A stretch of DNA of 31,653 bases, taken from assembly GCA_029747585.1 (NCBI GenBank), contig JAPEVF010000532.1, forward strand, positions 1 to 31,653, given 5' to 3'. A program made the translations under genes and the position numbers. Below are positions 6,280 to 26,022 of the stretch, piece by piece. The stretch comes from Pleurotus djamor (Eukaryota; Basidiomycota; Agaricomycetes; Agaricales; Pleurotaceae). A model generated the notes under the pieces. The model searched no databases, was not told where the DNA came from, and was given only the letters and a program-made list of their open reading frames with translations. Numbering within the stretch: position 1 is the first letter of the stretch; every line of letters starts with the position of its first letter.

Positions 6280-8011
6280 ATGCACATACTGCCTGTGACC
6301 CTAACAAGCATTATCTTAATTTTCCTCGGCGTCTTTACGAGCAATGAACCGTTAGCACTTGCCCTTGCTGCTTCCGATGTTTCTGGTCCTACGAGCAAGT
6401 TGATGGACAAGTCACTGCGATTCGAACTGCGGCATATACATGCTGTTTCGCCGTCGTCGAGGGTTGTGTTTTCGGATGTGAAGGCCCGTCGTGGTCACGC
6501 TGAAGATGAACAATTGTATGCTTTCGATGATACGCGGTGGTATGGGCTTGATCAAGATCGACCACAGGAGGTGTACTCTGCTGACTCTCCTACTTCGTTG
6601 TCTTTGGCTTCTGGGGAGTCGCTCACACCATCGAGATCAATTCGTACGCTGCGAACGACGAAGGTTGTCAGGACGAAACCTAAATCTGCAGTGTTGTTCG
6701 AGCAAGTTCGCCGTGGTCGCGACTTTATTGGTTTGGGCTTGGGTAAGGGAGGAGAGGGATTGTGGGAGGAGCCTGAGGAGGTTGTAGGCCCGGATGTGGA
6801 GAGTCGAGAGACGTTGTTGGAGTTGGCTAGGATGGCTAATGATGCGTATCTCGAGCCAGGGGAGACGGGGTGGTATGATTTGGGAGATCAGTGGAATACC
6901 GTAAGTTCCATTCTCCCTGACTGCTTTAATTCATCTACAACTCATATGTGTACAATCTACCTCGTATAGTCGTATCCATTCGGTTTCGAGCCCGATGCAG
7001 ATGGGTTCCGCGGGAATGTCTTTGCGACTACGGATAATTCTACCATCGTCGTTTCGATCAAGGGTACCTCTGCGGGTATCTTCGGTGGTGGTGGACCTAC
7101 TGCGAAGAAAGACAAGCTGAATGATAATCTGTTGTTCAGCTGTTGTTGTGCCAGGGTGGATTGGACTTGGACGACCGTGTGTGATTGTTATCGAGGTGGC
7201 GGGGGGAAATGCGATGTGGGATGTTTGGAAGAGGCGTTGGCGGAGGAGAGTTTGTTTTATCCGATTGGAACTGTGAGTGATCCCTTTTGGTCTGAGTCGC
7301 GTTTCGTTTACTTACTGGAATGTTTATAGAATCTTTATAATAATATCACATATATGTATCCTGACTCGGATATATGGTTGGTCGGACATTCGTTGGGAGG
7401 GGCGTTGGCTAGTTTGCTTGGTGTCACCTTTGGAGTGCCCGTCGTGACATTTGAAGCACCTGGAGAGAGGATGGCTGCAGGGAGGTTGCATTTACCTTCC
7501 CCGGTTCGTTCGTCCGTTCAAGCTGCTGAATTCGCGCTCACATCTTCGCTTTTTAGCCATCGTTGCACCATGTAACCCATGTCTACCATACGGCTGATCC
7601 TATAGCTATGGGGACATGCAATGGGATACTCTCCTCGTGTGCATTGGGAGGATACGCTATGGAATCCAAGTGAGTTTCCTTTACTCGTATATTCAGACCT
7701 CGCAGCTGAACGTCCTTTCTATTGATGTATAGATGCCACCTAGGCAAGACGATTCTGTATGATACCGTATCGGTGTTGAATTGGTCTGTGGACGTACGAA
7801 CACACGGAATCGTAAATATCATCGAGCAGTTGTTGGCTAATCCATGGCCACCGAGCGTTGAAGAAGGCAGAGAAGTTCCAGAGGCCAAGGCTGAAGATGA
7901 CTGCGTCGTAAGTCGATAACCCACATTTTTACTGCGATTTCTGACGGTCTTGTGTCTTCGTAGGAATGTTACAGCTACGAGTTTGGAGACTTTCCGCTGA
8001 AGTCCAAGTGA
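6280..8011 (+). CDS. ATG15: ATG15 vacuolar phospholipase (autophagic body lipase)
   Basis: Class-3-lipase-fold phospholipase that breaks down autophagic and multivesicular body membranes in the vacuole. Six exons (6280-6900, 6970-7272, 7330-7503, 7557-7669, 7733-7907, 7964-8011) join in frame to 477 codons. It starts [19 protein letters not shown], a single N-terminal hydrophobic segment expected to be a signal anchor carrying the enzyme through the ER to the vacuole. The catalytic Ser lies in [17 protein letters not shown]. The Asp of [13 protein letters not shown] and the His of VRTHGI fit the rest of the triad. [10 protein letters not shown] and the Cys-rich stretch around [15 protein letters not shown] are family landmarks. 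The donor after exon 3 is GTTCGT, unusual but needed for frame. The protein ends soon after ECYSYEF, so it lacks the long tail some orthologues have. The ATG at 6280 directly precedes the hydrophobic segment. Confidence 0.92.
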
Positions 8012-8106: not shown

Positions 8107-8390
8107 CTCGGCTCCCACATTGCAGTTTCCTTATCTCTTGTGCTCGGGCATGTACTGTCGCCAGTGAGGTCTTTACCGAGGCACAGTCTTTTGCTGATTG
8201 CAAATTACACATCCGAACTCGTCTGTTAGCTTCGGCTTTCAGCAATTTTTGGAAACCCTCTCTTCCTTTGTGATTGCTTTGCATGAAATGAATTGGGGGC
8301 GTAGTAGCATTAGTAGTAGTCCAGACAATATACTTGCTTTTCTTCATAAACCAAACTGTGTGAACTTCGCATGAGATCCTCCTCCCGACC

Positions 8391-8928
8391 ATGATTATTC
8401 CTGTTGAATTCGGCTCGTCGTCGCAATCGAAACTACCGTCTGGCCTCGCAAAATTAGGGAACGATGAAGTTGTGCTCGTTGAGCTGCAAGGCACCCTCGA
8501 GGTGGATGGCAATGAAAACGATGGAAAGCTCGTTGGCAGACTGAAGATGGATGGAGCCTCCGTATGTCTTTCATGGCTAGTCTAGCCCCCCGCAGGAGTA
8601 GCAATGCTAACCTCCACAGTCAAAACCGACGCTTATGATAGGGCATCACCTTCTTGAGGGGAAGATAGCCACTCTTGCTAAACCACTAGCTATTCTCCAC
8701 CGTTCTTCCAGCGGAACTCCTGAAATACAATCGCCATCGAAGGATCAAGACGACTCAATGGATTGTGACCAACCAGATGCGAATGATCGTGGAGAGAAAG
8801 TGGATGTAGATGGTTCAGGATCTGGAGCCGCCGTGGAACGGGAACGAAGATGGGAGATCGTGGCGTTGGTGAAGAAAAAGATTTTGTTTTCGAAGAGGCC
8901 GATGCCTATTGTGAAGAGTCAAGGATGA
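8391..8928 (+). CDS. CTF8: Ctf8, subunit of the Ctf18-RFC clamp loader
   Basis: Small subunit that, with Dcc1, joins Ctf18 and Rfc2-5 in the alternative clamp loader for PCNA handling, sister-chromatid cohesion and the replication checkpoint. Two exons (8391-8561 and 8620-8928) are separated by a 58-bp intron starting GTATGT and ending CACAG; the phase is 0 and the product is 159 aa. Family landmarks are VVLVELQGTLEVDG, then GKLVGRLKMDG, then PTLMIGHHLLEGKIATLAKP across the splice, and finally WEIVALVKKKILFSKRPMPIV. Between the conserved blocks is an acidic, low-complexity insert (about residues 105-140). ATG 8391 is the first Met and sits just before the beta-strand expected at the N-terminus. 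Confidence 0.92.
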
Positions 8929-13949: not shown

Positions 13950-15819
13950 ATGGATAAATCCATAAGTACCTAAGATACCTCAGTTGGATTCTCAATCCCT
14001 TATTGGATGGATTAATCCAAGGCAAACCCCAGGCCATATATTTTGAAACTCAGACCTGCAGGCTTGTATTTTCTAGATTAGGTTATTTGTTCCCACACTT
14101 ACTAACAATTCTCATTATGATTTCTATTGACTGTGGGAAAATATTTGTGACCCTGGGAATTCTTAGGATGAAATAGGGGAACACAGATGTTTCCAAATGT
14201 GAATGTCTATGTCGTCAAACATAAAACATATGGATTCTTGGAAAAACATATGACTAGAAAACTTATGCAAAACATAGAAATTACACGAAAACTGCGAATG
14301 TAGAGATTGTATTTCTGATCAGAAATGTTGTCTCAAGTCTATATTTGGATATGTTTTGGCGGAGATAACAGCACTTTTCTATGTTTCAAAATAAAAACAT
14401 ATGAATAACACCTTATTCTATTAGCTTTCACCTGCATTTCCTGGTTGTAGTGGGGTCAGTTCAGTAAGAATAGGTATGTAGCTTCTTTTGTAGACTTTCA
14501 AGCATCTGGATTGCCCGATATCTCTCTGAAATGTAATTTTCTCCATTTCCTATGTTAAAAAATACATGAATATGTTCAAATCCATATACAGCTTGCCCAT
14601 TCACTCTAGGCAGGACTGGCTGCTCTGAGCATGAATCTACAATATATATGAATAGTTGGATAATATTAGACAAGGTTTCCACTGTGTATTGCAATACACA
14701 GGGATATGTCAAAGATATGTTTTTTCAATGTCAAACCAGCCATAGTACCATAATATATATGCTTTCATGGTCTTGAATGGTCTGAATAGTATATTCTTAC
14801 ATAGTCCTTGCTTTTCAGACTGAATTGCTGGGTATTGTCCACTGAATTGGACTGAAACCCAAAACCAGCTTCAGACTGAATAAAGGTTGTAAGAAAGTTA
14901 CTAGCTCTACTGTTTCTATGGCTGAAAAATTTGTATCCAGCTTTCACATGGGATGAGGTAAGTATGGAAGCTGGTATCACATTTGCACAGCTCCTGCCAT
15001 AGTCTAAGCCTTGTTCCTGTCAAATAGCTAGTGCTAGTTCCAATTCTTTGGTGAGATGACAGGTGGTATGCAGATAAACAATATCCCCCAGATTTGCATA
15101 TTGGTATTTCCCAAGGGACCATATGAGCAGAACTTTATACACATGTCTACCAATACATTCTGAAGTATCTGGAACCCAATACTTAGATCATCACAGCCAA
15201 TAAAGTCAATTAGATGGGGAATGTTATAGTAGGAGTGTTACAAGTCGGATGTCATTGACATTTAACCATAATATTATATGGACCTATGATCTATTAAAAG
15301 GGCTATTCTAAGGTCAGAAGACAAGCATACATACTCTTCATGGATGATATAGCCTGATGTTATACAGAAGCCATTTATAATCAAAATGCTAAAATGACAA
15401 TATGTTATTCAATGTTATTTTGGGAATTCTGAGCTAAGGAGCTGCGGGAAAATTGGCCTGAGACAACATTTTGGATTCCCTGGAGCCTGGCTTCATTTTT
15501 CAAATTCACATTTTTTCAATGTTTTTTTTTATGTTTTTTCAATGTCATTTTGTCAATAGGCTCATCAAAACTGTGTTTTAAACAGGCTTGAGACAACACT
15601 TGGAATCCCTGGAAGAAGACACATATTTTCATTTTTCTTTCTGATTTCTATTTTTGGATATTGCCAAATATTCATATATATATATAATATTCATAAACTA
15701 ATATTTTCTGCTTACAAATACAGCTGAGATTGAGCTGAGACTCAAATGCCAGAGCACTGCCACATTGACCCCTGGCAGAATCCAGCCCCACTGTCTTAGG
15801 CACTAATGGATTAATCCAT
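13950..15819. mobile_element. Nested AT-rich element with inverted ends, non-autonomous
   Basis: The left end, starting ATGGATAAATCCATAAGT and then ACCTAAGA, matches the right end read on the minus strand: ATGGATTAATCCATTAGT and then GCCTAAGA (three differences in 26). The outer 14 bases are themselves palindromic, and a further GGATTAATCC lies at 14009-14018. Base composition is much more AT-rich than the flanks, which helps mark the borders. Short AT duplications at the borders are compatible with a 2-bp target duplication but could be part of the ends. No ORF inside resembles a transposase. Internal repeats include TTTTTTCAATGT (about 14719, 15512, 15535) and two imperfect copies of GAGACAACATTTGGAATCCCTGG at about 15460 and 15590. 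Confidence 0.62.
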
Positions 15820-18800
15820 GTTCTATTGTATATTCTTACAACATCGGCTGGGTCTTGATGGCCAACTCCTCCCCGCTTCTCAAATTGACTTCATCTATGA
15901 CCCCGATAATCCCGTCCCTATGCCTGTGGCCCCTGAAGACGACGAAGTTGCCATGAACGACAACCGTGAGTCTGCGCGACCGTCCATAAAAATTCCACTA
16001 ATGATGAGTCCCTCAGAATCTTCTCGCCCTGCCCGAATGCGCCGTACAACCGCCAAGGGACAGGAAGCCCTTGATTCCCTCCGCCAAGACGAGTATGGAC
16101 GGCTCGAGTCCAAGTTTCGGACCAGAGCTTGTACTCAAACGACTCGTTCTAAGCCTACGAAGTTGACGGTGTCGGTTGTCGATGGAGAGGAGGGAGCAGA
16201 GGATACGGACTTCATTCCGAGGTCTGATGCTTCTCTCAGTGAGGACGAAGTAGGTGAAATCACCAATGCAGAGGTATGTTCTTTTGATGGATCATACTTT
16301 TCCTCATGCTGACATCTCCAATTAGCTTGCTGCTTTGCTTCCGACGAAGATTGTTCTCCCTGGCGCCAAACGTCGTCGCGAGAACTCAAAGTCTTCGCCT
16401 CCACAGATCAAGCGCACTCGCAGTGGTACCCTGTCCAAGCCTATGTCGCAACCTGAGCTATCTGATGCCAGCTCTGCCCCCAAGGGAGGGAAGGTATGTC
16501 TTTATTCCACGACACTTAGGTGCCTTAATCTAATACACATCATCATCGTAGCGAAACCCCATCTACCTCTTTTATGAGGAGATTACGGCGCCCATCAATG
16601 CACCTTTCCCCAAAGGTGAACGGCGCTATGTTTGCTACCACGATGGAACTCGCAAGCAGATGAAGGTCACACCTGGGATGAAGTACAGTACGACAGGTAT
16701 GTGTGTGTTCCGCTGTGCCTCATATCCTGTTCGCGGCTCATTGCATGCCATCAATAGGTTTGGTCCACCACCTTCGCAAATTCCCCCTTATGTTCCGGCT
16801 CTATGAGGTCCTCAAGAATCGTAGCCAGCCCCCCAATGCCCAAGAAATCGAGATTGCTGCCAACCGCAGTCCCATGACCCTCGAGTCTCTATCGATGTTT
16901 GTTCGCGGCCAAGAAAAGCAGTTGGCGGACATACGTGACCTTTTCGACAAGCAGAAAAGCAAGGACAAGGTATTTATTACTCTTTTGCATGATCGACACA
17001 CGTTCTCATGAACCGACTAGGCCGCTTTCAAGCAGGATGTATTCGATAAGTTGCTTACAGAGTGGATGGTCTCGTGCGACCAGCCATTCACAGAGGTTGA
17101 CCGTCCCGAGTTCCGCTCCTTGATCGACTACCTCTATCAGACTGGTAACCACAAGGACGACCTGCGAATTCCAAGCCACACGACGGTGCGAACCAAGATC
17201 ATGGATAACGGGGAGAAGAGTATGGAGGCTATGGTCGAAATGTTTTCGGTATGTCCCTCGCCCTGCCTTTTTCAGTTGAAGTCATGCTGACACTTAAAGG
17301 TCTCCCTGTCACTTGATGCTTGGACATCATCTAATCAATACGCATTCTTGGCAATTGTTGCCCATTTCGTCTCTAATGAAGGAGTTCTTGGTATGTTCTT
17401 TTCTTATTGCGCCGTGCGCGATGATGAGCTCACCGAGACGTTTTACAGAAGAGATCTTGATTGACTTCCAGGAGCTAATAGGGTCACACACAGGAGCTAA
17501 TCTTGCGGAGGTCGTATGGCAAACAATGTTGAGTTTTGGTCTCGTAGGAAAGGTGTGTCCTGTTTCTTTGGTCGTAATCTATGGTGATACTCAACGGATC
17601 AAGGTTGTCGCTATTGTTATGGACAACGCATCCAATAATGATACTCTCATGAGTACCCTCGAACAATTGCACCGTCAATCCGGCTATGATTTCCCGGCCA
17701 AGAGCTCGCGCTTACGGTGCATCCCCCACACTATCCACCTTGCCGCCCTTCGCGTAGGTCACAAATCAGTTCACCTATTCCAATCACGCCTGTAGCTCAT
17801 CTGATTTCAGCTCCTCGAAGGCATTGGCGCGCTTACCCCTTCTGACCGGACACGCGCAGCTGGTCAAGAAGGGCAATATCAGTCAATCGTTACTGGTGAC
17901 GATGATGATGATGAGATGGATATGGGAGATGAGGACGATGACGATGAAGTACCAGAGTTGGTTGAGGCCATTGATCCCAATACGTTGGACCTCGACAAGA
18001 TCTCACTGTTGGTTTCACGGGTATTTATAGCCTAGCTTTTGTTGTTATCCACATCATTGAAGCCATTGCAGTTACGCAAAATCATTCACTCAGTCAGATC
18101 ATCTCCGCAACGACGCGGGTCTTGGCTTGAAGATGTCTCTAATGCGCTTCGTGCGAAAACCTTGAAAACACAGTCGAATAACCCCTTGATGCTTGTGCTG
18201 GACTCGAAGACACGATGGTCCTCAACCCATTATATGCTTCGTAAGTTCTTCAGTTCATACAATATGATGCCTTTGCCTTCATGACACTGGAACAGGCCGT
18301 GTGATCCACCTGAAAGCCGTCTTAAATGACTTCGTCGCGAAGAACAGAGACTTACGCAGCTACGAGCTCAGTGATTCTCAATGGAACGCAATCGAAATAG
18401 TTGCCAAATGGCTCAACTACTTTCACGCCGCTAGCATCCAGATGTCCTCGACCTCAGCGCCGATGCTTTCTACCACCCTTGCCATGTTTAGGGGGCTTCA
18501 GGAGCACCTCCGCGAAATCCTCGCGACACTTCCTGACAATGCTCCCAAAGTCCTCCGAGATAGTCTTGTCGCCTCGCACCTCAAACTCAGTGAATACTAC
18601 ACGAAAATCGATGAATCCCCATTTTATACTTGGGCTTCACGTACGTTTACGGAATCATCTTCCTTATAATGACTTACCTGATGTTTCAATAGTATTAGAT
18701 CCCCGGATCTCATATAAAACACTCAAGGACGAGTATTCAAGTGACAAGACCCTCCTTGAGGACTTAGAACGCGCAAAAACAAAGCTGACCAACCACTTCA

Positions 18801-19250
18801 ACTCCTACTATAAGGGCCGGAAGCCCAAGGAAACACCCGTCTCGGCAAAGGCAGCCTTGAAATCCGCGGCAGCTGACTCTGATAACGTTGACCTTCTTGC
18901 AGGTCTTCGAAAGCGTCAGACAGCCGTGACAAGTGAGCTCGAAACATATTTCAGCCTTCCACTCGCGGATATGGATGTTAATCCCATCACTTGGTGGACT
19001 GAGCGCCGTTCTCAGTTCCCCGACCTCTATCAGCTCGCGTATGATGTCCTTGGGATCCCTGGTATGTCTCGTTTCAATCTAGGAAGTATAATAAGCTAAG
19101 TATTGCATAGGGAATGCGGTCGCTGTCGAAAGGATCTTTTCTGCGGCACGCGACACCATCTCCCTTCGGCGGGCTAGCTTGAAGCCTAAGACCATCCGGA
19201 CACTCATGATCTACAAGCAACAGATACGTCGCGCTCGGCGGGGACACTAG
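15818..19250 (+). CDS. hAT transposase, intact reading frame
   Basis: RNase-H-fold transposase that would excise and reinsert the surrounding element. Thirteen exons with GT-AG introns (exon starts 15818, 16326, 16552, 16758, 17021, 17300, 17449, 17604, 17811, 18072, 18296, 18693, 19111) join in frame to 928 codons with no stop. Landmarks in order: a basic KRRREN stretch likely for nuclear import; a degenerate BED-finger-like RRYVCYHDG...VHHLRKF; FTEVDRPEFRSLIDYL; SLSLDAWTSSNQYAFLA; VVAIVMDNASNNDT; RCIPHTIHLAAL; an acidic insert DDDDEMDMGDEDDDD; DSKTRWSSTHYML; SSTSAPMLSTTLAMF; LDPRISYKTLKDEY. The C-terminal hAT dimerisation region reads WWTERRSQFPDLYQLAYDVL, then VERIFSAARDTISLRRASL. The start is uncertain. 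ATG 15818 is created at the border of the nested insertion, the next internal Met is at about 15920, and the original start may be 13888. Confidence 0.9.
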
Positions 19251-19329
19251 CTACTTAGTTACAATGATGTAGAGTTGTAAAATCGACTTTTTGCTCTACC
19301 CCTTTAATCCAGGAGTTCCCCTAAGTACA

Positions 19330-19480
19330 AACACCGTACATACGGCCGTCTATCCGTTTACCGTGCCGTACCGTTCCGTATGGTCCTCTCTGAGTATCTC
19401 AATACGTACGGGGGTACCCCTGTAATACCCCGTATACTCACCGTTTTTTTNACGGCCGTTGCCGTATACGGTACGGCTTG
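19330..19480. repeat. Right subterminal CCGTA/TACGG repeats of the hAT element
   Basis: CCGTACATACGGCCGT, ACCGTGCCGTACCGTTCCGTATGG, ATACGTACGGGGGTACCCC and GCCGTATACGGTACGGC repeat the short words found in the left subterminal block. A single N follows a T run at 19451. Confidence 0.75.
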
Positions 19481-19488
19481 ATGCCCTA
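19473..19488 (-). repeat. Right terminal inverted repeat of the hAT element
   Basis: Read on the minus strand it is TAGGGCATCAAGCCGT, one mismatch from the left end. The plus-strand ATG at 19481 inside it is the first start codon of the following WD40 ORF. Confidence 0.8.
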
Positions 19489-20293
19489 CTCTGCATCACT
19501 TTGGGATGGATCCATTGAACCTTTGGATGTAGTCAATATTCACGGCGAGATCTCAACGATTTCCCAAGACGGGTCGCACATTGCTATTGGTCATACTAGC
19601 GATGTGAGCATCGTTGATTTCACAATGCAGCCGCCATCGGTCATCAAGCCAACTGACGACAAGGACCCCAACAACAGTGGCGACGTCTACTCTGTATGCT
19701 TCTCCGAAGATAGCCAAACTTTTGCGACCGGCCATTGGAATGGCTGGATAAAGCTGTGGCAAAAGGAGGGAGAGCAATGGATGGTGTTCAGGCGGTTTAA
19801 GGGCGGGGTCAATGAGATCCACCACCTTGCTTTCTCAAGGGACGGCTCTAGGTTAGCGTGCCGTGCTGAAACCATCAAAGTGTTCAGTGTGGTGGATGAC
19901 CTGGTAATGGAACTGGAAGATTCTCAAGATTCAGTGTCGTTCGTGTGGGCTCCATCTGGGGATCGACTGGTTTCTGGAACAGGCAATGGTAACATGAAGC
20001 TTTGGAGCCCTGCTCAAGGGAACATTCAACACATGTTGAATGCCCATCATGGTGGGATCCAATGTCTGGCATTCCGGGACAACGGACAGGTGCTTGCAAC
20101 GGGGAGCAGTGACAGAAGAATACGGATTTGGCGATGCGACACTTGGGAGAGAACAAGGGAGTTTGATATTGGTGAAACGGTTTCGTCAGTTGCTTTCTCG
20201 CCTGATGGGAAGCGGCTCGTATCGGGAGGCCGCATGGGTGCGCTCCATCTTTGGGATGTCGAAATGGAAGATAGTGATGAGGCTGTGGTTTGA
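19481..20293 (+). CDS. WD40-repeat protein, probably 5'-truncated by the hAT insertion
   Basis: Intronless ORF of 270 codons from ATG 19481. It holds about six WD40 blades: ISTISQDGSHIAIGHTSD; VYSVCFSEDSQTFATG...IKLWQ; HHLAFSRDGSRLACR...IKVFSV; VSFVWAPSGDRLVSGTGNG...MKLW; IQCLAFRDNGQVLATGSSD..IRIW; VSSVAFSPDGKRLVSGG...LHLWDV. WD40 blades form a propeller used for protein-protein binding. The first ATG lies inside the hAT terminal repeat, and the first native residues (SASLWDGSIEPLD) look like the end of a preceding blade. The original gene therefore probably extended upstream, perhaps as an NLR-type NACHT-WD40 protein common in Agaricomycetes. Nothing in the left flank of the hAT matches such an N-terminus. 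It could be a living short gene or a relic. Confidence 0.78.
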   Translation: MPYSASLWDGSIEPLDVVNIHGEISTISQDGSHIAIGHTSDVSIVDFTMQPPSVIKPTDDKDPNNSGDVYSVCFSEDSQTFATGHWNGWIKLWQKEGEQWMVFRRFKGGVNEIHHLAFSRDGSRLACRAETIKVFSVVDDLVMELEDSQDSVSFVWAPSGDRLVSGTGNGNMKLWSPAQGNIQHMLNAHHGGIQCLAFRDNGQVLATGSSDRRIRIWRCDTWERTREFDIGETVSSVAFSPDGKRLVSGGRMGALHLWDVEMEDSDEAVV

Positions 20294-21027: not shown

Positions 21028-21469
21028 AATTCTTTTGTGTGCGGTTCTGCGATCCTTGTCGTCATTTCTTCTACTCGTGCTGCTTGTGGGATTCGTAGAC
21101 TTGTTACCCTCTTGACCCCCTTTTTTGACATCTACGGTGGCCTCAAGGTCATTTTTTGGGGAGGATTCACGTTCTGCTGCGGCTAGGTGCGTCTCCTTTA
21201 AATTCGCATTCTTTTTCATTCCTCTTACCATTGCCCTTCTCCCTTCTCCAGCATAAGAGTAGAGTAGACGTTGACTGCTAAAACGTCACACGCACCACAT
21301 TATACATCAATCTTACTGCCGTCACGTAGCTCACTACGCAGTATCAGACCGTCAAATCGGACGATGTCCATATGAAGTAGCCGCGCCGCTCGCGGCTCTT
21401 CCTTGTTGATACTCTCTGGTTCAACGGTTCGTCTTTGATTCATCGATATCTTTTTGCTTTTCTGTATTT
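21028..21469. other. Left flank of the palindromic array, nothing coding recognised
   Basis: No domain or conserved exon was found. On the minus strand, reading away from the array, the integrase frame does not resume here. The missing 3' part of that gene is therefore not simply on the other side of the array. Confidence 0.4.
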
Positions 21470-22116
21470 CAGTAATCCCTGCTACTTGAGTTAACAGATT
21501 CCAACAGTTGTTGCAAAATGTAGTTAATTCGGCCCAGCAAGGATTATTAACAAAAGTCCAACAAGCCCTCTGGTCTGTTAACAGATGCCCAACAAGATTC
21601 TGTTAACAAAACGCAACAAGGGTGTGAATATAGTTAACAGAGCACCATCAAGGGAGCATGGCTGTTAACAGAAACCCAGCAGGCCAGAACTCGCTGTTAA
21701 CAGAGACCCATGAGGGAACTGGGGCTGTTAACAGGGATCCAGCAAGAGTATATATCCTGTTAACAGCTCCAGTTCCTTCATGGTGTTCTGTTAACAGTGA
21801 ATAGTGTCTTGATAGGTTTCTGTTAACAGGATATATACTCTTGCTGGATCCCTGTTAACAGCCCCAGTTCCCTCATGGGTCTCTGTTAACAGCGAGTTCT
21901 GGCCTGCTGGGTTTCTGTTAACAGCCATGCTCCCTTGATGGTGCTCTGTTAACTATATTCACACCCTTGTTGCGTTTTGTTAACAGAATCTTGTTGGGCA
22001 TCTGTTAACAGACCAGAGGGCTTGTTGGACTTTTGTTAATAATCCTTGCTGGGCCGAATTAACTACATTTTGCAACAACTGTTGGAATCTGTTAACTCAA
22101 GTAGCAGGGATTACTG
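21470..22116. repeat. Giant perfect palindrome built of a GTTAAC dyad array
   Basis: The left arm 21470-21766 and right arm 21820-22116 are each 297 bp. Compared base by base, they are exact reverse complements, around a 53-bp centre (21767-21819) that is not self-complementary except for its middle site. The arms are made of the 10-bp dyad CTGTTAACAG or close variants. Exact GTTAAC occurs at 21490, 21577, 21602, 21633, 21664, 21696, 21727, 21759, 21790 (centre) and the mirror positions 21822, 21854, 21885, 21917, 21948, 21979, 22004, 22091. Degenerate forms lie at 21523, 21546, 22035 and 22058. In the inner part the sites are 31-32 bp apart. Between sites is a second weak word, CCAACAAG/CCAGCAAG. 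No long ORF and no target duplication at the outer edges. Candidates: a foldback-type element, a binding-site array, or a hairpin-RNA source. Confidence 0.95.
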
Positions 22117-23026
22117 GCCGTGCATGTCTGCATCGTGCCAATGACGGAGAAAGGTTTGGGCCTTAGCAAGACCGAAGTTCTCGGTTCCGGGATCGCTTTG
22201 CGTGACCAAAGGAATACCTACAAATGTGAGATAAATTCAACCTTTTTTCTGGTCAATAAAACACAACTCACTACCCGTCTCTTGTGCGTCGTCTAGGTAA
22301 TAGCTGGCAATCAATACAGGGTTTTTGTTTGTATGCCACACCTTGAGCCAGTGGATTTTCCCTATGAAAGGATCAATTCCCGTATGAAGCCGGAGTCCAT
22401 ATCGTTGCCATTTGTCGTGCTGATCACAGCAGATCATGTCCATCACCCCAGCCGCCCAGAAACGCTTGCGGCGAAAGCGTTCGTACCGTCGCTGACGCAC
22501 CAATCGTGGCTCGTAGCGGTGGAAGTAATCTGTCAACACCGTGCTACCATGAACATTAGCAACGCTGCATCCAATCAAGTCCTGACTTTTCGGATCTCAC
22601 CGTGTAACGTGTAGGCCATGCTCCTCCTTTAGTAGTTTGAGCATGTCTCGCGTCCCCGCTTTCGGGTACATTGCTCGCAGCTCGGTCATTGGCGCCCTGA
22701 TGTCTTGGACTGTCAATTTCGCGGAGCGAGCACGAACAAGCCCAAGTTTTTCCCGGTATTTGCGAAGCTTCTTGACACTAGTGGATTTCAGTGACAGCCA
22801 TTGCAGGATAGATATGCAGACACATACGCCAAACCATGGGTGTCGGTCTTAAAGTAACCACCTTGGATCAACGACCGCAAAATTTGCTTGTCGTTCAATC
22901 CTTGACGCCAAAACTTACGGATCCCATCCTTTATTTCCTCAAGAGGTGCTGCCAGTTACTATATCAGTATGTGGTAGTGGGAAAAACAGGAACTCCCTCA
23001 CGGTTTGGCAAGTGCTGGTTGGGCAT
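22111..23026 (-). pseudogene. Integrase-core (RNase-H-like) gene truncated by the palindrome
   Basis: Minus-strand gene of five exons: 23026-23002, 22948-22828, 22777-22601, 22543-22275, 22217-22111. They join in frame to 232 aa, starting MPNQHLPNPPLEEIKDGIRK. An N-terminal helix-turn-helix-like block contains LNDKQILRSLIQGGYF. Linker words PMTELRAMYP and LKEEHGLHV come next, then FRRKRFWAAGVMDMICCDQHDKW with the first catalytic-type Asp. LHTGIDPFIGKIHWLKVWH follows, and TQSDPGTENFGLAKAQTF has the second Asp. This is the order of a transposon-related integrase-core family common in Agaricomycetes. The frame then reads HDADMHGQ and stops at a TAA supplied by the palindrome arm. The expected C-terminal half with the third acidic residue is missing, so it is probably inactive. 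Confidence 0.82.
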
Positions 23027-23253: not shown

Positions 23254-26022
23254 ATGGCCAATCCAGACAACCCTCCCCAAGTCGGCTTTACCTCAGTTTG
23301 CGACGTCGATTATATCTGTCAACGTGACCGCTGTCGAGTAGTGATCCCTGCTGGACACTACAGGTTCTACTTTGTTAGTTCGTCGCCAAAGCAGACATAT
23401 AAGTATGTTTGTGAGAAATGCAACGAATACTATCTAGACAAACAAGGTCAGTAGTTGCCCAACCAATCTACATTAATCATATCCAAGTAATACTCCTGCC
23501 TTGGTCAGCAATGGAGTTGCAAGCAACTCAGACACGAAACAAACGGTTAGAAGACTCGGCTCGCAGATCATCCACATCGTCGGTAATGGAAAGCCAACCC
23601 GAGCAGGCGGCTCCGCGCTCTACTTCCCACCCACGTCCAGTGTCAGGGCCACGTCCAATATCTTCCATGGTCAACACTAAGGAAATCCGGAGTATGGTGA
23701 ATATAGCGCAGCGTAAGGGTGAGCTATTTGCTTCTTTTTCATTTTGTGATCTATACTCTAAATATCGCTATTTCCAAGGATCCTCCCATGAGCAACGATT
23801 GGTCCAACCTCTACCGCCGGCACCCTATCAACTGGCCAGATCACCCAGCGTCTTTCATCCCACCGCTTCGACAGGTCATCCAACCCTGAATCCTCCTCGG
23901 AACTTTACTGTGCCGCAATCTCCAAATTATGGCAAGGGTTATTCCAGTTCTCACATGTACCATGCCGCAGCTACGAGTCACTGGCGGGGCGTTGCTAATG
24001 CCCCTGGCGATCGGTGCAACATCCTCATGGAACTCCATCACGAACGCCGAGGCAGCTCTCGGGGCAAGAAGCTAAGTGAACGAGTTGACGTAAGCACAAT
24101 ATTCCTTTTGAGAAGCATATCTTATCTTATTGTGCGGCTAGTCACTGCCAAAATCGGTCTCGGAGGGTATAGATATATCTGTGGATATGTCAGGTGCCGA
24201 AATCGCGGCTTTGACTCGGAAAGTCCTTTATGCAAAGCTCACAAGTCTTACCCCCAGCGGATTTGTTTGGGATGAAAACAAAATGACGGTGCGAGACACA
24301 AAATGGATGGATTTGTCACTGGAAATGGATGAGGGTCATTTTCGGGGGGCATGCACGAAAGTAGGAAAGGATAAGAAGGCTAAATTTTCGCGTCCAAAGG
24401 ATCCCTTTGTGGTCATGCTTGTAATTGACATGGCCCACTATGAAGAGTACGAGGACTTCCTGGAAGAGAGCCAGCCGATGGGGGTATTTGACAATGTAAT
24501 GAAGAAGGTACATGGATCGTATTGCCTCGCTGTCGTCGCCTTTGCTCATCCTCCTTCCTTTTTAGTCTGCATCACCTCAGAAGAACCGGAAAGGTAAAGG
24601 CCGCCGTAAGCCAGCGAACACGCAGATCACCATCCCCGAATCCGATGAAAATATACCCCCACCTCTGCCTCTTTTCACAGAGGTGTCTCAAGACAGTAAT
24701 TTTTCAGTTCGTCAGACCGTGACAAAGCGTGCTCGATCAGTACGTCTACGACTATCTACATCCATATTGCTATTTGTTCTCATCATTTATCTATACCAGG
24801 ACTCTCTTGCACACCCCTCCACCCCTCCACGGCCAAAGCGACTCCATAGCTATGTATCCCCAGACCAACAAGGCCTTTATCGTGCGATGAAGGAGGTTGG
24901 TTCCGTTACTGGTAAGTCCGCTCCGAGTCTTATCCTGCGCTTGCAAGTAAGCGCTTGATCAATCATCATGCATCAATCTCAACTCCCAATTCTCTAGCCG
25001 CAAACGAAGAGACCACAGTCCCCATTGAGTTCATGGCTGTCATCGTGCCGTCATTCAACGACATCATTGCCTCACCATCCCTAACCTGGTCGAACAACTC
25101 TATCCGGCACGGCACATTGTCTCATACCAACGAGCAGATTGGTCTCGGTTCATTCAAGACATGTCACATTGGCACTATCACCCTTGTTGATGCTGGGGAG
25201 ACAGAGATTGATTTGCTGCGGGGACTTGACCATCAGAGTGTCGCAGTCAAGCGCTTTTATTTTCGAGAGAAGGATGGACCGAGCCGACCTTTGCGGCAGA
25301 TCCAGCGCTATGCTATGGTGGATGAACTGAAGAGGACACTGCTTGAGGCCAACATACTTCGTTGGGCTTCATCTCTCCTTGAATTCGGCTACAGCTTTGT
25401 TGAACACACGATCGAGTCACTTGATGCTGCGGCCGCCAACTCTGACCACTCCCCACTGGACACGAACACTGCCGCGCAACTCAAGCTACTCACAAAGTTG
25501 CGCTACAGTATTCCTCAACTTCGGTTTGTCCATGCCGCAGTGGTCAAGTCACATACACAGGCCGCCCACGACAGCATCGCCTCTACCGCTACTCGAGTTG
25601 GTAATGTTGGTAACCACGTTGCCACATACCTCATTGAAGAGAGGATTCCGCCTGCCAGCTCGTTCATCAAGTACATCAACAACGCAAACGCCACCTCTCT
25701 TATTACTAACCCTCGCAGCCCTTACTATGCCCAGGCCCGCTTTCTGTGCACCATGCAGCACATCCTTTATGTCAAGACGGAACGAAAACTCTTTATATCC
25801 GACTTCCAAGGCGCTGGATTGCTGTTGACGGATCCGCAAGTTATGACCTCAAGGTAAGACAACTCCCTCATGTCCACCGAAACCACAGCTGACCAGCACC
25901 AAAGGGACTTCGGTTTTGGCGAAGGAAATATCAGCTCTGCATTCGATGCTTTTCCGAAGCAGCATGAATGTAATGAATATTGTTCGCTACTAGGGCTTGG
26001 AAGCCTCGCACCAACAATCTAA
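23254..26022 (+). CDS. Alpha-type (MHCK/EF2K) atypical protein kinase
   Basis: Serine/threonine kinase of the alpha-kinase family. Eight exons (23254-23446, 23509-23718, 23779-24089, 24142-24507, 24566-24739, 24800-24911, 24998-25853, 25905-26022) join in frame to 779 aa. The N-terminus is a short Cys-rich block (CDVDYICQRDRCR ... YVCEKCNEYY) that may bind zinc. About 400 residues rich in Ser, Pro and Arg follow. The kinase domain is in the last 280 residues: glycine-rich IGLGSFKTCHIGTI; VAVKRFYF with the ATP-binding Lys; ANILRWASSLLEFGYSFVEH; YLIEERI and FIKYINNAN; then FISDFQGAGLLLTDPQV. The zinc-linked C-terminal signature is FGFGEGNISSAFDAFPKQHE followed by CNEYCSLLGL. All expected landmarks are present, so it is probably active. 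Substrate unknown. Confidence 0.92.

What the first reader, a model, noticed from the sequence alone, without database searches (positions are those of the whole stretch)
21470..22116. Perfect 297-bp inverted repeat made of a palindromic-site array
Both arms are identical over 297 bp while the 53-bp centre is unrelated to itself. Such long perfect palindromes are unstable and decay quickly, so this one is recent, maintained by conversion, or selected. Each arm is itself an array of CTGTTAACAG dyads, so symmetry exists at two scales. The layout recalls Drosophila foldback elements, whose long inverted ends contain about 31-bp tandem repeats. It could instead be a protein-binding array (origin-, centromere- or insulator-like), or, if transcribed, a long hairpin feeding the RNAi pathway. 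I know of no described fungal element with this design.
Basis: partly seen in the sequence, partly recalled or inferred. Interest (0 to 1): 0.92.

Follow-up and report, generated by a model that had tools for sequence, protein, structure and literature searches.

The report
Shortened foldback KDZ transposon in mushroom
This 647-base inverted repeat with two perfect 297-base arms in a fungal genome is a shortened copy of a foldback-type jumping gene whose longer relative carries a KDZ transposase gene; that enzyme is predicted to move it, and its two flanks pair with two different insertions elsewhere in the genome, likely through an assembly error.

Summary
In detail: 21470-21766 and 21820-22116 form a perfect 297-bp inverted repeat. 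It is a transposon. The genome holds 13 exact copies of its terminus. Their 7-bp flanks form 5 exact pairs across contigs; 0.005 are expected. Empty sites were aligned for three pairs. A relative in C345 has inverted arms (right 1.27 kb; left seen for 401 bp) around a KDZ transposase with a CxC2 cluster. With 7-bp duplications and CA..TG ends it fits Kyakuja, though Laccaria Kyakuja are described without terminal inverted repeats. The arms are arrays of ~31.6-bp units; the conserved box is CTGTTAAC-N5-CCCA, not the full dyad. The 53-bp centre is two more array units; the short form lost its interior, joined across 11 bp at one CTGTTAACAG. The left flank pairs with C143:13210, the right with C1277:15094. 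Misassembly inside identical arms is likelier than real exchange, but exchanged duplications are also the sign of Galileo-type ectopic recombination. That it is a foldback transposon is well supported; the KDZ link rests on one contig; activity and the array's role are inferred.

The parts
21463..21469 (+). 7-bp half of a target-site duplication, TGTATTT; its partner lies at C143:13210, not at the window's right side
   Evidence: Exact 7-bp pairing of flanks; paralogous empty site in C776 aligned across the junction, 494 of 554 aligned letters identical, one of the 7 letters changed
21470..21766 (+). Left arm: terminus CAGTAATCCCTGCTACTTGAGTTAAC, then array units with 8 GTTAAC cores, 5 of 7 steps 31 or 32 bp
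21756..21766 (.). 11-bp junction C+CTGTTAACAG where left-arm positions 287-297 and right-arm positions 351-361 coincide: scar of the interior deletion
   Evidence: Left arm matches the C1252 long arm for 297 bp; right side matches it to 361 with one mismatch at 303
21767..21819 (-). Centre: two further array units of the right arm (arm positions 298-350); carries T at position 303, as C143 does and C1277 does not
21820..22116 (-). Right arm, perfect reverse complement of the left arm
22117..22123 (+). 7-bp half of another target-site duplication, GCCGTGC; its partner lies at C1277:15094
   Evidence: empty sites in C1296 (336 of 336, with only 43 bp on the C1277 side) and in paralog C1205 (531 of 593, two of the 7 letters changed)
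22240..22848 (-). Open frames (22240-22596, 22600-22848) of a gene beside the right flank; in paralog C1205 a 102-aa frame runs through the empty site into the C1277-side sequence
   Evidence: ORF lists; no Pfam match at E 0.01

Best explanation
The 647-bp inverted repeat is a shortened copy of a foldback-type DNA transposon whose longer relative in the same genome encodes a KDZ (Kyakuja-like) transposase, which is predicted to move the short copy in trans by cut-and-paste. Shown: common termini, 7-bp target duplications, empty sites, and a KDZ gene between inverted arms in contig C345. Inferred: the phased CTGTTAAC-N5-CCCA array is a row of binding sites for the transposase or its partner protein. 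Inferred: the short form arose when the interior was lost between two CTGTTAACAG sites, for example by failed gap repair after excision. The window's left flank through its centre most likely is insertion A (partner C143), and its outer right arm plus right flank is insertion B (partner C1277); the switch would lie within the identical outer arm and is most likely a misassembly.
For: 13 exact termini in 11 contigs, and one in C493 with 3 mismatches. 10 of 13 flanks fall into 5 exact 7-bp pairs; no pairs at 4, 5, 6, 8, 9 or 10 bp. Four empty sites aligned for three of the five pairs: C1032 and C1296 with the 7 bp exact, C1205 and C776 as paralogs with changes in it; one search lists coordinates fitting empty sites for the two remaining pairs (C604, C1238), not aligned. 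C345: bases 1-401 are 100% complementary to 7478-7878 and the right arm ends at 8749; between them KDZ (E 2e-34) and CxC2 (E 3.6e-34). Kyakuja in Laccaria: 7-bp duplications and CA..TG ends. Deletion scar.
Against: No transposase gene is in the window. The link to KDZ rests on one contig (C345) of an assembly that looks mosaic at these repeats, and that contig starts inside its left arm; its subfamily matches the window's arm only over the outer 202 bp at 91%. The window copy has no matched duplication of its own. Three of 13 flanks (C108, C1252, C331) found no partner. Laccaria Kyakuja families are described as without terminal inverted repeats. The T/C marker at 303 is weak: the two halves of one insertion, C1286 (T) and C843 (C), differ in it. 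No transposase tree was made.
Confidence: 0.82

Rival explanations
1. The flank swap is real: two foldback copies recombined ectopically in the living fungus, leaving a chimeric element at a chromosome rearrangement breakpoint, as Galileo does in Drosophila.
For: Both window flanks have their exact 7-bp partners elsewhere, the exchanged-duplication sign reported for Galileo. Of five elements whose two opposite ends lie on one contig within 4 kb (C899, C1286, C593, C490, C695) only C593 has matching duplications.
Against: The assembly looks mosaic at these repeats: C1277 joins the array to sequence whose parts match C486/C1347 and C14, and 6 of the 11 ends outside the window run into a contig end within 288-420 bp. 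Mismatched duplications in 4 of 5 such elements suggest a systematic assembly cause. C143 ends 351 bp into the element, so the reciprocal junction cannot be seen.
Confidence: 0.2
2. The palindrome is a transcribed hairpin feeding RNA interference.
For: Perfect arms could form long double-stranded RNA (sequence).
Against: Copies are precise insertions with target duplications, so a transposon explains the structure without this; no RNA data were available.
Confidence: 0.08
3. The array is a host protein-binding site (origin, centromere or insulator) that happens to be inverted.
For: Regular phasing of a conserved box.
Against: Every contig listed with paired CTGTTAACAG sites (which lists only part of its 112 matches) also holds the transposon terminus; the fetched empty sites lack the array.
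Confidence: 0.03
4. Even the palindrome itself is an assembly product, the real insertion A being a long element with a large interior.
For: Long forms exist (C1252, C345); the assembly looks mosaic; insertion C843/C1286 shows unit 8 on both halves, so it is not of the 647-bp form.
Against: The junction shares only 11 bp, which I judge too little to join reads falsely; the C143 half ends at arm position ~350, where the short form's junction lies.
Confidence: 0.12

Closest known systems
Kyakuja transposons of Laccaria bicolor (Kojima 2025, PMC12730594; outline, passages and section 3.2.1 read)
   Same: KDZ transposase; 7-bp target duplications; 5'-CA..TG-3' ends; found in Agaricomycotina
   Different: Those families are described as without terminal inverted repeats and carry a TET/JBP gene; here the C345 right arm is 1.27 kb, and no TET/JBP domain was matched in the five C345 frames and four gene X frames of C847 that were scanned, which are not all frames of the element
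Cryptococcus KDZ1-KDZ3 (PMC12810828; passages read)
   Same: KDZ transposase with a cysteine-cluster domain, terminal inverted repeats, ~9-11 kb full length
   Different: Their repeats are 139-241 bp, target duplications 8 bp (KDZ1) or 4-8 bp (KDZ2, KDZ3), domain CxC1; here CxC2, 7 bp, much longer arms
Galileo foldback elements of Drosophila (PMC2775673; passages read)
   Same: Foldback layout, long inverted repeats, 7-bp target duplications, exchanged duplications at chimeric copies
   Different: Galileo is of the P superfamily with target consensus GTAGTAC; here KDZ and five unlike target sequences
Drosophila FB and Mutator-type foldbacks (recalled; Tm1, PMC3169594, seen in a listing only)
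   Same: Long inverted ends built from ~31-bp tandem units (FB, recalled)
   Different: FB/Mutator types make about 9-bp duplications (recalled); here 7

Membership tests
Kyakuja (KDZ superfamily) | KDZ transposase domain | tested here: met
   PF18758 E 2e-34 in L054:976-1662, between the arms of C345; not in the window copy, which carries no gene
Kyakuja (KDZ superfamily) | CxC cysteine cluster next to the transposase | tested here: met
   PF18803 CxC2 E 3.6e-34
Kyakuja (KDZ superfamily) | 7-bp target-site duplications | tested here: met
   5 exact pairs at 7 bp, none at 4-6 or 8-10, among 13 flanks
Kyakuja (KDZ superfamily) | 5'-CA..TG-3' termini | tested here: met
   CAGTAATCCC at all 13 ends
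Kyakuja (KDZ superfamily) | No terminal inverted repeats (a trait reported for two Laccaria families, probably not defining) | tested here: not met
   Perfect arms of 297 bp in the window and 401 bp seen in C345 with a 1.27-kb right arm; report
Kyakuja (KDZ superfamily) | Transposase falls in the Kyakuja clade of a KDZ tree | not tested
   No labelled reference proteins at hand
Zisupton / Dileera | 8-bp target-site duplications | tested here: not met
   No 8-bp pairs among the 13 flanks; 8 bp reported for Zisupton and a Dileera family
Galileo (P superfamily) | P-element transposase | tested here: not met
   Five scanned frames of C345 match KDZ/CxC or nothing clear, none a P transposase
Foldback elements (structural class) | Long inverted repeats built of short tandem units | tested here: met

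The most novel reading that the evidence does not exclude
The fungus carries a whole clan of foldback Kyakuja transposons, with arms of helically phased transposase-binding arrays, that remodel its chromosomes by ectopic recombination; the window is one such breakpoint, the fungal counterpart of Galileo evolved independently from another transposase superfamily.
Probability: 0.18. Interest if true: 0.75.

Novelty: new variant of a known kind. Interest (0 to 1): 0.5.

Why it matters
It extends foldback architecture to the KDZ superfamily, whose Kyakuja branch was described in Laccaria without terminal inverted repeats, and suggests that long array-bearing arms arise repeatedly in unrelated transposase families. 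The phased CTGTTAAC-N5-CCCA box gives a concrete candidate for what a KDZ/CxC2 protein binds. It also warns that contigs spanning such elements can join two loci: only 1 of 5 elements with both ends on one contig has matching target duplications.

Tried and rejected
Considered and set aside: hAT (8-bp duplications usual), Mutator foldbacks (9 bp, recalled), P/Galileo, a host binding array, and a repeat with a foreign centre. Reading the window copy as one insertion was rejected because its two 7-bp flanks differ and each pairs with another contig. Gene X beside the arm in C345 and C847 gave no Pfam match and no relative in the protein search with one exon (361 candidates, none at E <= 0.001). 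The trehalase search gave no species: the closest named protein is from Boletus coccyginus (89% identity over 89% of the query; eleven unnamed proteins rank above it), so a Boletales-like mushroom is a guess. The Rfam scan of the window found only a U4 RNA elsewhere. Labels given by eye and backed by no family search: retrotransposon frames in C108, alpha-glucosidase and TPR frames in C1277.

I hoped that arm identity would mark chimeric copies, as in the Galileo paper. It did not: C593, with matching duplications, has arms no more alike (633/657) than C1286, without them (639/658).

C847 stays unclear: its arm pairs with C345 by the 7-bp rule, yet the same gene X follows the arm in both and then C847 runs into other sequence.

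Full report
Observation. The inverted repeat is exactly as described: two 297-bp arms, 100% complementary, 53 bp apart. The window has 11 exact CTGTTAACAG sites, all in this element; 100 shuffles average 0.01.

A transposon with fixed ends. One arm gives 31 matches in the genome, a lower bound by the tool's own note. Seven are full-length and 100% identical: the window's own two arms and five elsewhere (C1286, C1277, C1252, C843, C143:124-420). C143:13210 is 99%, C1155 is 100% over 288 bp to its contig end, C108 is 93%, and C331, C345 and C847 match over the outer 202 bp at 91%. The 26-bp terminus CAGTAATCCCTGCTACTTGAGTTAAC occurs 13 times without mismatch and once with three (C493). All 13 change into unrelated flank at the same base.

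Target duplications. I compared the flanks of all 13 ends with each other. At exactly 7 bp, five pairs are perfect: C899 left with C143:13210, C899 right with C1277, C1286 with C843, C1155 with C143:420, C847 with C345. At 4, 5, 6, 8, 9 and 10 bp there are none. By chance 78/16384, about 0.005 pairs, are expected. Three flanks (C108, C1252, C331) have no partner.

Empty sites. Searching all 13 flanks at once found places where the two flanks of a pair meet. Four were fetched and aligned, for three of the five pairs: C1032 for C843/C1286 (537 of 541 identical), C1296 for C1277/C899 right (336 of 336, but only 43 bp on the C1277 side), C1205 for the same pair (531 of 593), C776 for C143/C899 left (494 of 554, with gaps). 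The 7 bp is exact in C1032 and C1296, and has two changes in C1205 and one in C776. C1032 and C1296 look like uninserted alleles or near-identical duplicates; C1205 and C776 look like paralogs. In C1205 a 102-aa open frame runs through the empty site, one part matching the window's right flank and the other the C1277 flank. For the other two pairs one search lists fitting coordinates in C604 and C1238, not aligned.

The parent. C345 holds a near-complete relative. Bases 1-401 are 100% complementary to 7478-7878 and the right arm ends at 8749. So the right arm is about 1.27 kb; the left arm is seen only for 401 bp because the contig starts inside it; the whole, extrapolated, is about 9.6 kb. 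Between the arms lie frames matching the KDZ transposase (E 2e-34) and its CxC2 cysteine cluster (E 3.6e-34), and an unnamed gene X. The genome has 106 KDZ matches, counted exon by exon, so fewer genes. C1252 carries a long member closer to the window (99.7% over 361 bp), with 403-bp perfect arms and further inner inverted repeats that resemble other elements such as C490.

The array. GTTAAC cores recur at 31 or 32 bp: 22 of 27 steps in C1252, 25 of 28 in C345, 12 of 15 in C847, 9 of 12 in C1277, 5 of 7 in the window's left arm; these copies are related, so the counts are not independent. About 31.5 bp is three turns of B-DNA (established knowledge), so the boxes would face one side. Among 49 distinct units (of 72, from C1252, C345 and C847; chosen by GTTAAC, so those six letters are fixed by construction), C1 and T2 hold in 46 each, C14 in 36, C15 in 44, C16 in 45, A17 in 49, A20 in 45; the right half of the dyad holds in only 31-32. 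So the conserved unit is CTGTTAAC-N5-CCCA rather than the palindrome. That it is bound by the transposase is inference.

How the short form arose. Read from the outside, the window's left arm equals the C1252 arm for 297 bp and then leaves it; the right side equals it through 361 bp with one mismatch, at 303. The two overlap by 11 bp at one CTGTTAACAG. The interior was thus lost between unequal array positions, and the 53-bp centre is the surplus of the right arm. Failed gap repair after excision is a known route for such deletions in other DNA transposons (recalled; inferred here). Not every copy is short: C843 and C1286, the halves of one insertion, both show the unit after position 297, so that insertion is not of the 647-bp form.

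The flank swap. At arm position 303 the window has T, as do both C143 ends and C1286; C1277, C843 and C1252 have C; C108 lacks the unit as searched. So left flank, left arm and centre fit insertion A with C143 as its other half, and only the outer right arm and right flank need come from insertion B. The marker is one base and is weak, since C843 and C1286 differ in it. A misassembly is the simpler reading: C1277 looks mosaic itself, and 6 of the 11 ends outside the window run into a contig end within 288-420 bp. But exchanged duplications are precisely the sign reported for Galileo recombination, so a real exchange stays open.

Related families. Ends of the form CAGTAATNNNNGNTACTTNNGTYAAC with up to two mismatches occur 31 times (one match of the reversed control). 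Five elements have both opposite ends on one contig within 4 kb; only C593 has matching duplications (GCAACAG). The window, C490, C695 and C1286 do not; C490 right pairs with C20 and C695 left with C85. The arms of C490 and C695 were not read. In C593 and C1286 the arms are 633/657 and 639/658 identical, and left and right arms match crosswise between the two copies (686/700 and 677/697), which does not mark C1286 as chimeric.

Comparison. Kojima 2025 (PMC12730594; outline, passages, section 3.2.1) reports 7-bp duplications and CA..TG ends but no terminal inverted repeats for Kyakuja of Laccaria, and 8 bp for Zisupton and a Dileera. The Cryptococcus KDZ elements have 139-241-bp repeats and 8-bp or 4-8-bp duplications (PMC12810828, passages). 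I therefore file this as a Kyakuja-like KDZ element of foldback form, with the tree untested. Searches for foldback elements in fungi or basidiomycetes listed no such element (listings only).

Noticed in passing
G000 C1286:3822-7617 (L041) and C593:53886-57652: Second foldback family with ends CAGTAATGGGAGTTACTTTTGTCAAC and many 30- or 33-bp steps; beside the C1286 copy lies a tnp2-type (PF02992) transposase frame, L041:3001-3900.
   Followed up: partly
C207:7115 end and C1286:3822 end: Flanks of two ends from different terminus families match over 8 bp, unexplained: chance, or a hybrid insertion.
   Followed up: no
window 18401-19489: hAT transposase remains (PF05699 in the frame 18401-19099); C1252's foldback lies in a copy of the same hAT family (81% over 918 aligned columns).
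   Followed up: partly
window 8134-8297: U4 spliceosomal RNA gene, Rfam RF00015, 71.6 bits.
   Followed up: no
window 24916-25857: Alpha-kinase family frame (PF02816, E 1.1e-11).
   Followed up: no
window 14001-16000: G+C falls to 36-38% against about 46-56% elsewhere in the window; cause unknown.
   Followed up: no
L034:1748-4020, L033, L056:5084-5636: Gene X, an unnamed gene inside the C345/C847 elements, with a 553-bp fragment in C1162; no Pfam match and no relative found.
   Followed up: partly
C1277:14239-14616: Contig looks mosaic: first 267 bp identical to C486 and C1347, last 122 bp 97% to C14, then the array.
   Followed up: partly
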